DNA of 64,000 nt, from positions 7,635,246-7,699,245 of the forward strand of contig OZ017770.1 of assembly GCA_963969345.1 (NCBI GenBank), in the 5' to 3' direction. The stretch is from Turbatrix aceti (lineage: Eukaryota > Nematoda > Chromadorea > Rhabditida > Panagrolaimidae). The notes below the pieces were generated by a model. It did no database searches and was not told the origin of the DNA. It saw only the letters and a list, made by a program, of their open reading frames with translations. The position numbers and the translations under genes were made by a program. Shown piece after piece: positions 38,249 through 50,200 of the stretch (its first letter is position 1; every line of letters begins with the position of its first letter).

Positions 38249-41200
38249 ATGCATGCATATCAAAGGATTGGCTTTTCTGATTCAGACTCTGCCAACAGCG
38301 AAAATGATGATTCTGCGACTTTGTTGAAAAGCTCTAGACCAAAAAATCCGAGACAAAAGAAAGTAAGTTGCTTTTTTTTTGATGACGTGGATATTGCTTT
38401 TTTTATGATATTGCATTTTCTTTTTTTTCAGAGAGCAGAAAAGACTCCACTTCTCACGTCAATTGATGAGTCTCCACGACGAAACGATGGCGTCGTTTCT
38501 GGATCCGATCCAATTGGCGGTGAATCATCTGACGAGGACACTGTTAAATTTTGTTGGTTTACTCTTTTAGTTGTTTGCTTTGTTTTTATACTGACTTTTA
38601 GATAACGATCAATACGGGAGCGTAAGCGGTGCCGACTTTGCTGCAGTCCTCGTCGAAGCTCATCGTGCGATCAACCACGGCATCTTTCCCGAGAGAATAC
38701 CGCAGGGTTCATCCGGATCGTATTTCGTAAAAAATTTACGTGGCGTACGTTGTTTTGTTTTTTTTTGTTCTTTGGTGTCTAATTATTGTTCCGCATTCTT
38801 TTTTCAGCACCGCATCGGAGTCTTCAAACCAAAGAATGAGGAGCCCTACGGCCATCTTAATCCGAAATGGGTCAAATGGCTTCACAAACTCTTCCTTCCC
38901 TGCTGCTTCGGTCGGTCTTGTCTGATCCCCAACCAGGTTTGTTCGCCTTTCACATCATTTTCAAATGTATTTCTGTTAGCCATAAGCACTAGAAAAAAAA
39001 AGTCAGTCATCTGCTGTTAATGGAACGAGCATCACTGCTTATATCATAATACTGCTTAGACAATTGTTTGTTTTAAGAAATGAGTGGTTATGGGAATATG
39101 AGTAGTAATTTAAAGCTGGGGGGGATATACGGGAAAGGAAAGCAAGCGCCGGTTTTAACATTGAATAGCTACGTAGGATGGGATAGATTGCGGTTATCAA
39201 AATGTGGGTCTCAGGACGTCTTTTGAGATCTCTTCTGTCTCGCGGACTGTTGAACTTCGGGGCGTGTAAGTAGAAGAGCGGAGTGAGGGTTCGCCGGCTG
39301 TGTCTTGGTCAAATCCATGTTCCTTGCTCATGATCGAGTCTTCGTAGAGCGTCGACTGTCGGGCGGGAGTCGAGCTGCCACGAGGAGGCGTCAGAGGATT
39401 GGAAGCGTACGTGGAGCGTACGAATCTGAAAATTTGTTGGTTTAGGGGATTTGTATGGTTGAAAGGGCCGTGAGTGACTCACCGATGACTGGCTGTGTCA
39501 ATGTTGTCACCGGGAAGGACGCTGTTGTAGCCGCCGCCTGGCGTGCGGAGTCCAAGGTAGCTAGGACCACCGATGCGGGCAATATCGGTGATTAGCTGGC
39601 GGTCGGTGACGTCGCGTCGACGACGACGTTCGCCTTCGAGTTGTTCTCGCATGGAAGCAAGTTGTTCTTCGAGTTGACGAATTCGTTGGCGGTGGTTGCG
39701 TTCTCGGTTTTCAATCATGCGTTCGATCTAAAAAATGTATAGGCATTTTAATGCAAGCATTGTTTGTTTGTATGCAATATTTTTTGTGAAAAGCCACTTT
39801 CAACTCACCTTAACCTTTTCATTACGAATGCGAGCAAGCTGGCGTTCTTGCTCTTCACGCTGCTTGTTTGTAAGCTCTAAGATGCGGTTGCCATTCTCCA
39901 TTTCAAGCTGGGCAATTTGTTGCTGCAATTGGGCGCAGTTTTTGTACAATTCACGGTTTTCGCGTTCCATAGCATTAAGCGACTTTTCAATAGCTTCTCG
40001 TTGAAGGGCAGTTTCACGGATGGCAGCGTCTGTTCGGCGTTTTTCGTTTTCAAGAATCTCGATTTTCTTGATGAGCGATGCCTTTTCGCGCTTCCACTGA
40101 TCATGGACGCGTCCGAGGCCGCCTTTCTCGTTCTCGAGTTGGGTAAGTCTTTGCTTGAGTTCAGTGATATCCTTGACGAGAGTCTTCTTTTCCGTTTTGA
40201 TGAGTTCAAGTTGTTGGCGGAGATCTGTCTCGGATGTGCGCTGTGCAGCAAGAGACTTCTCAAGCTCGAGGATTCGGTCTTCCGAGCGGTTCTTGTCGAG
40301 GTGGGCATCCTGGAGTTGGCGCTGCAAGTCTGTGGCACGGTTGTTGACTTCGTTGATACGCTGTTTGTAATCACGGAGTTCAGAGCGGAGACTCGTGATT
40401 TCGGTTTCAAGCTGGTTCTTGCGAGAGGTAGTGTTCGTGAGCTCATTCTGGGTCTTGGAAAGCTGGTCTCGGAGGTTCTGGTACTCAGTGTTGGTCTTTG
40501 ACTGGGCTTCAAGGCTCTTGCGAAGGTCGAGCTCAGCGCTTTCGGACTTGGACAGCTCGCGACGAAGTCTCTCAGTGTCGGAGCGCAGGTCAGTGCACTT
40601 TTGCTCGCTGAGCTTGAGCTGTCCGTCCAGTTCTTTGATCTTCTCACTGAGGCTCTGCTTGTCCGTATCGTAGTTGGTGATTTGCATATGCAAGCGCTGG
40701 AGCTCGTTTTCGTGGTCACGAAGCTTGCTTTCAAGCTGGAAGCGGCTTGCGTCAAAGCTTTCTTCCTTGTCGCGCATGCTACGGATTTCTTCGTGCGCAG
40801 TGTCGAGATCACGTCGCAAATTCTTGAGTTGCTCATTGAGGTGACGGATCTGGGCTTCTTTGCCGCGGGCTTGCAGGTCAGCAGCAACGACCTTTGACTT
40901 GAGCTGACGGCGTTCTTCGTCGCGCTTTCGCAGTGCTTCATCCTGGGATCGCAGGAGTTGTTTGGCGGATGCAAGATGGGCCTCGAGGGCACGCTTGTCG
41001 TCTTCCGTCTGATCCAGGTTCTCCTCGATCGTACGGTAGTGTGTCTCACGCTTGTTGATAGTGCTATGGGTGTCGCTCGTCTTTTGCTTCAGACGATTCA
41101 GTTCCTCGCGATAATCGTCCTGAAAACGAATTATTATTTTTTATAACTTGTCAATTTTACAAAGACAAAAATACTTACGCGATCACGTTGGAGACGATCA

Positions 41201-47200: not shown

Positions 47201-50200
47201 GCGATTTGCATTTCAACTTGAAATTCAATATACATACAACCCAGACCCCCTCCAGTAAAGGCAGCATTTGTTTTTTTTACTTGTTGTTTCAATCTATCAT
47301 AGGGCCTTGAAACTACTACACATACATCGACGAAAGTTAGAAAAAAATTTGTGGCACTTTCAAGGCTTCATACTTTTTACGACCCAAGAAACATGGTTCC
47401 ATGAAAGAAAAGAAAAAAGTTTACAAACTGATAAAAGGCCAAATCTCCAGGCGCATCAGTTGACAAACAATCCATTTTTGTTTGTTTCTAACGTGCAACT
47501 GGGCGAGGAAACAGCTTCCGGATGCCTGCATGCTTTCTGACAATGGCAATGGTCGCTATGGCCTCTCTGGGGTTTGTAAAACGCACGAAATATAGACCAA
47601 AGGCAAGAGAAGAGGAGAGGGTTTGCACTCATTCTATACATCCCGGGGACAACGCATAGCTTTACTGAAGGGTAGTAGTCTAATCCCGATGGCGACATTG
47701 AGCGTCGAGTGCGGCACGTTGTTGTTGTTTCCCTTTTTTGAAAGTCGCCCTGACTGACGGAGGATAGGACGAACGTTTCAAGTCCACCATACCCCAGAAT
47801 GGCTGTTTTTGGTGCAGGGACTTTTTTCTATCCTTTTTTCACTAAAACTTTTTTTCTATGGGCGTCAAAATTACGGCTAGTTTTTGGCCTTGGCAGAATA
47901 AATGCCTACTACAGCGTGAACGACGTTGATGGAATGCCACGACAAAAACACAGCATGTGAGAATAATCAATGTTGCCGCGGGGAAGGAAAGCAGAAGTCG
48001 TGCATGCCGATGCGGCGTGGCGCAGGCCACCTGTGTTGCCTAGTAACAACAAAATTATAATGCTCACAATTGTATTTTTGCATAACTCACATGATGGCTA
48101 TTTTAATATAAAAGTAGCCAAGTAAACAACTTTTTTATGCGGACTACTTATATCATCAGAAGCCTATGAGCAGTAATTGTGTTCTGACTGAGGGTAAAAA
48201 TGTCAACCGGGAAGATATGGTGCCCCATTGCATGATACAAAGGGCACATGCAAGCCAGTAGCTAGCTGGCTAAGTTGAGACATTTAAAATTTGGCCTGGT
48301 CGCAGATAAAATCCCTTTCCTTTCCCTCATGACATCAATCGGCCTAGCAGATATTTAGCTGGGGGCAAAGAAAGCGACTAAACAGAATATAAACAGGGCC
48401 ATGAAACGTTTACTGCGAGACTAAACGACTAAACTATCTAGCGGATTTAACAAAAAAAAAGTTTTATGTATGTTCTACTGGATTTACACACTCCAAGAGC
48501 AAGCGGAATGCAAAAACGGTGAAGGCATGGAATGCATCTGTGTTGTTGTTATTATGCACAGGTTTAGACATGTAAACAAGATATTGAAATTCGGTCAGAT
48601 GTGTCAAAATATGGAAGTAGAGTGATGGTAGGTAGGAGGAGGGATAGCTTTGAGGAAGATGATGCACTCATATGTATACTCTATGACGACCGTCGTACTA
48701 TTTGCGTATTCTGGTTTTTCTCTTACTCTCTCTCTGGGTTACATTATTATCCGGCCGCAATTTCCACCGTTGTCGCCGGTAGTTGTCGTCTCCTGCGCGA
48801 TTCTGTGTGTCACGTTGCCCACTTGTTTGTTCCATACTCAGGCCTACCTACCATTTATTCATAGAAAAATTTCAGGGGGAGGGGGAGGAGAAAAGGGAGG
48901 TGTACGTCATTTTTTTCCCTCACTTCTGTCGTTGTTGCCACCATAGAAACTGTGCAGTTGAGTGAAAAAAAAAAGATGGAGATGAGCTCTACCCTCGTCT
49001 TACTTATGTCGATTTCACTTTCTCCTTCTCCTTTTCCCTTTTCTTATTTTTGTTTATTTCTTGAGAAAAAAAAGAGTTACAATGCGTTGTGAAAAAAAAG
49101 AAAAAAATGCAGGCACGCAATTACCGGAAACAGAGAGCAAAGGTCACGCAAGAGCAAAAAAAGGATAAAGCAAAGTACTTTTTTTTCAGGGATATTTATC
49201 CGAAGCCGGTGCTTCATTGGTTGATCAAAAACTCGGTTTAAACGTTGTTCCCAAAACTGCTGTCGTTGCGTTTGCCGCACCGACATTCAATTACAGTCCT
49301 CTTGATCGCGCCAAGTCCCGTACAAAAGAACGTATTCGTATCCGTTACCCTGACCTCGGCAGACGATTTAGAAGAGTTGGACTTCCACTTAAGGTTCGTC
49401 AAGGAGTATTCTAACAGAAAAATTAGTTTTTACGATCCAATTCTTTCAGAAAGGAAGCTTCCAACTTTTTGTCGACGGATACAACGATGCATTTTATTGG
49501 CTGAGGCAGTGGGATCTTAACCCTGAAACAGGCTTACCTCTCAACCTGAAATCTGATTTTCAACAGCAATTTGAACGATTGGTCATCCTTGACTACATTA
49601 TACGAAATACAGGTGAATCACCTGAAAACCACAAAATTTGCCCATGAAATAGAGTATTATTTTTGTAGACCGTGGAAACGACAATTGGCTGATCAAATAC
49701 GTTGCGCCGATAGCTGGGCCTCCAGCTGAGGATGCGACAGAGCAACCACAGCAGCAGGAGATGGGAGGCAGCGAAAGCACGACAAATTCAGGGTCGCAAC
49801 AAGGTAATGTAACCGAAGACGTGCTTGTGGACCTGGGGGACACTACCGAAGAGACAACTCTATTGAACGCTGAGCAATTCCCATCGGACGCTCACCCCCC
49901 ACAAATTCCGGACGCTCAATCACAGCCGTTGCAGCCGGTTTTGTTCGAGGGCACGGATACGACCCAAAGTATGTAGAGAGAAAGAAAAATTATACTAGGG
50001 ACATAAAAAATAATTTTATATATGCAATTTTCAGGCAACGTGACAGCAACGGATATTGCCGACTCATCAAACCACTCGGTGGCAAGTCAGAACGACGAGA
50101 CAACAACAACATGGAAAAGTGACACACCGCAAGACGGCTCAGTCAAAGTTGCCGCGATTGACAATGGACTGGCGTTTCCCTTCAAGCACCCGGATGAGTG

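What the first reader, a model, noticed from the sequence alone, without database searches (positions are those of the whole stretch)
38937..49189. Complete rootletin gene nested antisense inside one PI4K2 intron
PI4K2 exons 4 and 5 are in frame with each other (LIPNQ / GYLSEA, contiguous in animal PI4KII proteins) but 10.25 kb apart, whereas all other introns of the gene are 50-75 bp. The whole 2243-codon rootletin gene lies in between on the other strand. Transcribing one gene must read through the other, so expression in ciliated neurons and elsewhere could interfere.
Basis: partly seen in the sequence, partly recalled or inferred. Interest (0 to 1): 0.75.

Follow-up and report, generated by a model that had tools for sequence, protein, structure and literature searches.

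The report
LFI-1 gene nested in PI4K2 intron
In this nematode genome a large gene for a rootletin-like coiled-coil protein (the LFI-1 kind) lies, on the opposite strand, inside one intron of a lipid-kinase gene, a known type of arrangement that here appears to be old.

Summary
PI4K2 exons 5 and 6 (NQ|GYLSEA, phase 0) are 10,253 bp apart, and a complete 2243-codon reading frame lies between them on the minus strand. The other 17 introns of the two genes are 46-336 bp. The acceptor at 49189 scores best of 597 AGs on the host strand of the intron. Of 24 relatives examined, 20 encode both halves in one protein.

One identification needs refining. The nested gene belongs to the LFI-1 (C. elegans ZC8.4)/PUMA1 branch of the rootletin-like family. 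A second rootletin-like gene sits on contig C1. C. elegans' ciliary rootletin is CHE-10, so the ciliated-neuron argument is unsupported.

Indirect evidence suggests the nest is old: shared cosmid ZC8 in C. elegans, consecutive locus tags in Haemonchus, and four PI4K2 models lacking the N-lobe (Globodera, two Panagrolaimus, Panagrellus) that begin exactly at this exon. No other nematode DNA could be inspected, so nesting there is inferred.

The host strand of the intron holds no strong decoy splice acceptor (4.7 expected); this is suggestive and post hoc.

Opposite-strand nesting is well known (567 pairs in C. elegans). This is a new member of a known kind. Interference between the genes is untested.

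The parts
38196..38936 (+). PI4K2 exons 1-5 (38196-38235, 38286-38362, 38432-38519, 38602-38744, 38808-38936): N-terminus and kinase N-lobe, with GSSGSYFV and FKPKNEEPYG
   Evidence: phase-consistent splice sites
38937..49189 (+). PI4K2 intron 5, 10,253 bp, phase 0; donor CAG|GTTTGT, acceptor TTTTTTTTCAG|G
   Evidence: acceptor ranks 1 of 597 AGs on the + strand of the intron
49190..50909 (+). PI4K2 exons 6-12 (49190-49393, 49450-49612, 49669-49968, 50035-50208, 50265-50398, 50445-50691, 50762-50909 with the stop codon): rest of the kinase, with RNTDRGNDNW and AIDNGLAFP
39197..46618 (-). Nested LFI-1/PUMA1-type gene, 2243 aa; coding exons 46618-46297, 46237-46075, 45738-45195, 45146-44134, 44083-41179, 41119-39809, 39727-39483, 39425-39197
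   Evidence: homologues; tree
46619..49189 (-). 2571 bp between the nested start codon and host exon 6: presumed promoter region of the nested gene (inferred). 46650-49150 is single-copy in the genome; no Rfam family or tRNA in the window
   Evidence: promoter role is inference
38937..39196 (-). 260 bp between the nested stop codon and host exon 5. Of nine hexamers looked for between 38600 and 39210, only AATACA at 38971 (inside the intron) and AATAAT at 38787 (beyond exon 5) occur, so the 3' end of the nested transcript is uncertain and could overlap host exon 5

Best explanation
The locus is a genuine opposite-strand nested pair. One type II phosphatidylinositol 4-kinase gene (orthologue of C. 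elegans ZC8.6) is transcribed from the plus strand and removes a 10.25-kb intron. Inside that intron lies an independent LFI-1/PUMA1-type coiled-coil gene (orthologue of C. elegans lfi-1, ZC8.4) transcribed from the minus strand, presumably from the 2.6-kb region next to host exon 6. The intron divides the kinase N-lobe (glycine-rich loop and ATP-binding segment in exons 4-5) from the catalytic segments (exons 7-9), so an active kinase needs reading and splicing across the nested gene. Shown: the gene models, their phases, splice-site strength, homology and copy number. Inferred: joining of the two halves in mRNA in this species, the position of the nested promoter, and the age of the arrangement, which probably predates the split of the Tylenchina-like and Rhabditina nematodes.
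For: Continuous frame and full-length PI4K2 homology. 20 of 24 relatives examined (of 120 listed) run uninterrupted through the junction. Three unnamed relatives encode the whole protein on contigs of 1830-2413 bp, hence spliced transcripts or intron-free copies (P0001, P0006, P0013). Acceptor 49189 scores best of 597 AGs, 12.14 against 8.84 for the next; donor and acceptor each rank second of 18 introns. The four models that lack the N-lobe (Globodera pallida P0012, Panagrolaimus P0018 and P0021, Panagrellus P0023) begin 1-12 unrelated residues before this exon, as expected if gene finders break at a very long intron there. Haemonchus PI4K2 and LFI-1 have consecutive locus tags V3C99_017569 and 017570 on records of the same length. 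C. elegans PI4K2 and LFI-1 are on records of the same length, and gene names ZC8.6 and ZC8.4 put them on one cosmid. G. pallida accessions of both begin A0A183BLK. Two PI4K2 paralogues in the genome are uninterrupted across the junction.
Against: No RNA evidence in this species. Nesting, as opposed to mere neighbourhood, was not seen in any other species, because no other nematode genomic DNA was available; locus tags and accession order fit neighbours equally well. P0014 (Angiostrongylus) is also incomplete at its N-terminus but starts elsewhere, so truncation is not confined to this exon. The 3' end of the nested transcript is unknown.
Confidence: 0.85

Rival explanations
1. The host is functionally split. 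The promoter of the nested gene, or a site near it, also fires towards exon 6 and makes a short PI4K2 transcript encoding the part from GYLSEA onward, next to the full-length mRNA, as reported for ceh-10 and polq-1 in C. elegans.
For: Precedent in PMC12274878: transcription of the host starts internally at the nested gene and yields a short version. Four gene models in other nematodes start exactly at this exon.
Against: The residues before GYLSEA in those four models are unrelated to each other (M, MSLLSL, MEGVNKK, MDLIHLNKVNIL), which points to prediction artefacts. In the window the frame upstream of exon 6 meets a stop after seven codons without ATG. The product would lack the N-lobe. In the precedent no clear short protein was detected by Western blot.
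Confidence: 0.2
2. Misassembly: the rootletin-like gene was wrongly placed between the two PI4K2 halves.
For: None found. Linkage in other species is indirect only.
Against: No N in the window. The window lies inside contig C6, which extends well beyond it on the left, and the intron sequence 46650-49150 occurs once in the genome. The same two genes are linked in Haemonchus and C. elegans, which a random misjoin would not reproduce.
Confidence: 0.03
3. The two halves are separate genes, or PI4K2 is a pseudogene here, and no joined mRNA exists.
For: Two uninterrupted PI4K2-like paralogues exist elsewhere (C1 and C2), so the window copy might be dispensable.
Against: All 12 exons are open with matching phases and the motifs are intact. 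The splice sites of the long intron are among the strongest of the locus. The paralogues are far less like P0001 (33-42%) than the window copy is over its conserved exons 4-7 (61-93%).
Confidence: 0.05
4. The nested gene is this species' functional ciliary rootletin, and expression in ciliated neurons interferes with PI4K2.
For: PF15035 matches it and, in this genome, only it. A butterfly rootletin-like protein matches it weakly (68 bits) and not the C1 locus.
Against: It groups with LFI-1/PUMA1 proteins, while the C1 gene groups with a separate branch (Halicephalobus, Panagrellus). C. elegans rootlets are made of CHE-10. No exact X-box; near-matches at chance.
Confidence: 0.1

Closest known systems
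ceh-10 nested in polq-1 (opposite-strand nested pair, nematodes; PMC12274878)
   Same: Protein-coding gene on the opposite strand inside a host with an unrelated function; reported nested in all six nematodes those authors analysed.
   Different: A transcription factor in a DNA-repair gene, with enhancers in several introns and a demonstrated short host transcript. Here there is a 7.4-kb coding locus in a lipid-kinase gene, one intron, and no transcript data.
The 567 opposite-strand nested pairs of C. elegans (PMC12274878)
   Same: Same topology; that paper counts about 5% of protein-coding genes.
   Different: I could not see whether ZC8.4/ZC8.6 is in its Table S1, since no supplement look-ups were available.
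C. elegans LFI-1 (ZC8.4) and ascarid PUMA1, the 227 kDa spindle- and centromere-associated protein
   Same: About 51-54% identity over nearly the whole length to LFI-1-type proteins; Rootletin and PUMA_CC domains.
   Different: The N-terminal exon resembles Tylenchina forms (Bursaphelenchus, Ditylenchus, Globodera) more than C. elegans (by eye).
PI4K2A/PI4K2B, type II phosphatidylinositol 4-kinases; C. elegans ZC8.6
   Same: Full kinase domain, aligned to 4hnd.
   Different: Long variable insert between the catalytic segments; the gene is interrupted by the nested locus.

Membership tests
Opposite-strand nested gene pair (definition as in PMC12274878) | One protein-coding gene lies wholly within the bounds of another, in opposite orientation | tested here: met
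   Coding regions only: 39197-46618 minus within 38196-50909 plus
Opposite-strand nested gene pair (definition as in PMC12274878) | Nested gene within a single intron of the host | tested here: met
   Coding region lies between 38937 and 49189. The transcript ends are unknown, and a polyA candidate beyond exon 5 exists
Opposite-strand nested gene pair (definition as in PMC12274878) | Host transcript is spliced across the nested gene | not testable with these tools
   No RNA data for this species; strong splice sites and continuous relatives only
LFI-1/PUMA1 family | Rootletin domain (PF15035) and PUMA_CC (PF24627) | tested here: met
   E 1.2e-38 and 4.7e-28 on the 595 N-terminal residues scanned
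LFI-1/PUMA1 family | Groups with named LFI-1/PUMA1 proteins rather than with the other rootletin-like branch | tested here: met
   16-row tree, fork 96/99; own gene with Bursaphelenchus and Globodera 100/99 (the tool warns of long branches and uneven composition). tblastn sums
Canonical ciliary rootletin (CHE-10 type) | Closest relative is the second rootletin-like branch or CHE-10 itself | tested here: inconclusive
   Not closest to the second branch, but CHE-10's sequence was not among the hits and was not compared. PF15035 finds the window locus only
Canonical ciliary rootletin (CHE-10 type) | RFX/DAF-19 X-box near the gene (recalled consensus) | tested here: not met
   0 exact matches in the window; up to two mismatches 138 against 137.3 expected
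Type II PI 4-kinase | PF00454 and alignment through the kinase to PI4K2A | tested here: met
   E 3.7e-29; 4hnd E 1.7e-126 with GSSGSYFV, FKPKNEEPYG, RNTDRGNDNW and AIDNGLAFP aligned (roles of these segments recalled)

The most novel reading that the evidence does not exclude
The lfi-1/PI4K2 nest is ancestral to the Tylenchina-like and Rhabditina nematodes and has been kept because it cannot easily be undone: the host intron cannot be lost without losing the nested gene. Its host-sense strand has been purged of decoy 3' splice sites so that the two kinase lobes can be joined across 10 kb of antisense coding sequence, and firing of the nested promoter may yield a short PI4K2 product without the N-lobe.
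Probability: 0.3. Interest if true: 0.5.

Novelty: new member of a known kind. Interest (0 to 1): 0.3.

Why it matters
If the nest is as old as the indirect evidence suggests, it would be one more deeply conserved opposite-strand nested pair in nematodes, after ceh-10/polq-1. It would also be a clean case, with one intron, one nested gene and unrelated functions, in which to test how a host gene is spliced across an active antisense gene. In practice it explains why automated PI4K2 models break at the same exon in several nematodes, and it warns that reads in this region must be assigned by strand.

Tried and rejected
First 5' end of the nested gene: a 2103-aa model starting at ATG 45803 (used as query). 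Replaced by the 2243-aa model with two upstream exons, because relatives carry ...YGEFYW|DTNGE... across the join.

Transposon or insertion scars: no inverted repeats of 20 nt or more in 38700-49400; the three direct-repeat families lie in coiled-coil coding sequence. 46650-49150 matches nothing else in the genome. Non-coding RNA: no Rfam family or tRNA in the window. X-box.

Decoy acceptors: with a matrix from the 17 other introns, 0 acceptors scoring 9 or more on the + strand of 38937-49175, against 4.68 (sd 2.11) in 100 dinucleotide shuffles, none as low. Controls: 6 on the antisense strand of the C1 paralogue (7229 bases) and 16 on the antisense strand of eight kinase loci (28,191 bases). 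Against it: threshold and test were chosen; 5 of the 17 training introns themselves score below 9; the parts taken alone are not significant (0 against 2.6 and 0 against 1.2); the minus strand of the upstream region also has 0; one other 10-kb tile has only 1; the eight loci contain non-coding flanks and may be related to each other. AATAAA on the host strand is not depleted (3 against 1.26 expected). I treat it as a lead only.

Other nematode DNA: the search for related loci in viral contigs found no relative. Flanking ORFs: 20 scanned against Pfam, no use for synteny. Literature: ten searches, requiring 4 of 5 terms on PI4K, nested, opposite strand, nematode and rootletin, found 0 papers. 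Among the 20 papers listed of 198, none held lfi-1, ZC8.4 or ZC8.6.
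Full report
OBSERVATION. The window is C6:7635246-7699245 of an unnamed 59.9-Mb genome in 28 contigs. On the plus strand twelve exons (38196-50909) encode a 614-aa type II phosphatidylinositol 4-kinase (PF00454 E 3.7e-29; human PI4K2A 4hnd E 1.7e-126). Exon 5 ends ...CLIPNQ at 38936 and exon 6 starts GYLSEAGASLVDQK at 49190, phase 0, so intron 5 is 10,253 bp; the ten other introns are 46-82 bp. The nested coding region is 260 bp from exon 5 and 2571 bp from exon 6.

IS THE INTRON REAL? A matrix built from the 17 other introns of the two genes ranks the 49189 acceptor first of 597 AGs on the plus strand (12.14 against 8.84 for the next); its donor and acceptor each rank second of 18. 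I aligned 24 of the 120 listed relatives (20 named nematodes, three unnamed, one nematomorph): 20 of 24 run through NQ|GYLSE without a break. Three unnamed relatives encode full-length proteins on contigs of only 2087, 2413 and 1830 bp (P0001, P0006, P0013), so in them the halves are joined in a transcript or in an intron-free copy. Two paralogous PI4K2 loci of this genome (C1:9749776, C2:11590145) are uninterrupted there. If intron 5 were retained, 27 residues and a stop would follow exon 5; upstream of exon 6 the frame closes after seven codons without ATG. Exons 4-5 hold GSSGSYFV and FKPKNEEPYG, later exons RNTDRGNDNW and AIDNGLAFP; from recalled knowledge of the fold these are the nucleotide-binding N-lobe and the catalytic segments, so neither half should work alone.

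WHAT IS THE NESTED GENE? Its N-terminal 595 residues carry the Rootletin domain PF15035 (E 1.2e-38) and PUMA_CC PF24627 (E 4.7e-28). The best homologues are Bursaphelenchus (53% in the final comparison), Haemonchus V3C99_017570 (54%) and C. elegans P0124 (51%), whose Caenorhabditis orthologues are named LFI-1; lfi-1 is ZC8.4 (passages of PMC2651883 and PMC2398786). A second rootletin-like gene lies at C1:3181799-3188694. LFI-1 and Bursaphelenchus queries give 1613-1752 bits in the window and 196-249 at C1; Halicephalobus P0173 and Panagrellus P0174 give 1459-1519 at C1 and 247-339 in the window. A 16-row tree agrees, with warnings about long branches and uneven composition, and with the C1 protein joined from seven pieces. 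Results that blur this: PF15035 finds only the window locus in the genome; butterfly P0156 hits the window (68 bits) and not C1; and CHE-10 itself, the C. elegans rootlet protein (passages of PMC9020716), was not among my hits. So I call it the LFI-1 branch of the rootletin-like family and do not carry ciliary expression over to it. No exact X-box is present, and near-matches are as frequent as expected.

IS THE ARRANGEMENT OLD? No other nematode genomic DNA could be read; a viral-contig scan gave nothing. Indirect signs: (i) Haemonchus PI4K2 and LFI-1 have consecutive locus tags 017569 and 017570 and equal contig lengths. (ii) The C. elegans proteins are on records of equal length (17,718,942), and the gene names ZC8.6 and ZC8.4 name one cosmid; that P0017 is ZC8.6 rather than its paralogue C56A3.8 (named) is inferred from its higher identity to the window and from that record length. 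(iii) Globodera accessions of both proteins share the prefix A0A183BLK. (iv) Four models that lack the N-lobe, from Globodera, two Panagrolaimus and Panagrellus, begin with 1-12 unrelated residues and then exactly at this exon. A fifth incomplete model, P0014, starts elsewhere. Points i-iii show linkage, not nesting; point iv suggests a very long intron at the same place. Together I put nesting in the common ancestor of these lineages at about 0.65.

HOW IT PROBABLY WORKS. Two independent transcription units share the DNA. PI4K2 polymerase must cross the antisense of the whole LFI-1 gene, and splicing removes it; LFI-1 is probably driven from the 2.6 kb next to exon 6, a single-copy stretch. 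The best-studied analogue is ceh-10 in polq-1, where transcription of the host also starts internally at the nested gene, giving a short host RNA, with no clear short protein on Western blot (PMC12274878: outline, passages and Discussion). The same by-product is possible here but not shown. The host-sense strand of the intron has no acceptor scoring 9 or more, where shuffles give 4.68 +/- 2.11 (0 of 100 as low) and antisense strands of other loci give 6 per 7.2 kb and 16 per 28.2 kb. This fits clearance of decoy sites, but the test was devised afterwards and its parts are not significant alone; AATAAA is not depleted (3 against 1.26).

NOVELTY. Opposite-strand nesting is common: 567 pairs in C. 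elegans, about 5% of its genes, and one pair nested in all six nematodes checked. PMC2330155 (passages) reports that nested overlaps are the preferred kind in worm. I found no paper on the lfi-1/PI4K2 pair in ten library searches, but supplements could not be read, and open-access full text is only part of the literature. New member of a known kind, of moderate interest because of its likely age and the split kinase domain.

Noticed in passing
G000 C1:9749776-9750762 and C2:11589684-11590789 (L019, L020): Two further PI4K2-like genes; the C1 copy matches P0001 residues 72-514 in one tblastn stretch without an intron, so it may be intron-poor or a retrocopy.
   Followed up: partly
G000 C1:3181799-3188694 (L018): Second rootletin-like gene, grouping with Halicephalobus and Panagrellus proteins; possibly the CHE-10 counterpart. 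The Pfam Rootletin model does not find it.
   Followed up: partly
window 38937-49175, + strand: No strong 3' splice-site look-alike on the host-sense strand of the intron, fewer than in shuffles or in antisense strands of other loci.
   Followed up: partly
window 36552-37992, - strand: Minus-strand exon-like ORFs upstream of PI4K2, head-to-head with it; no Pfam match of the raw ORFs.
   Followed up: no
P0008 (Meloidogyne javanica PI4K2 model): The model is fused to an upstream PF13012-containing protein, probably a gene-prediction fusion with the neighbouring gene.
   Followed up: no
window 15131-15892 (-), 30525-31337 (-), 63273-63812 (-): Single-exon pieces matching Pyr_redox_2, C2H2 zinc fingers and collagen (Pfam).
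   Followed up: no
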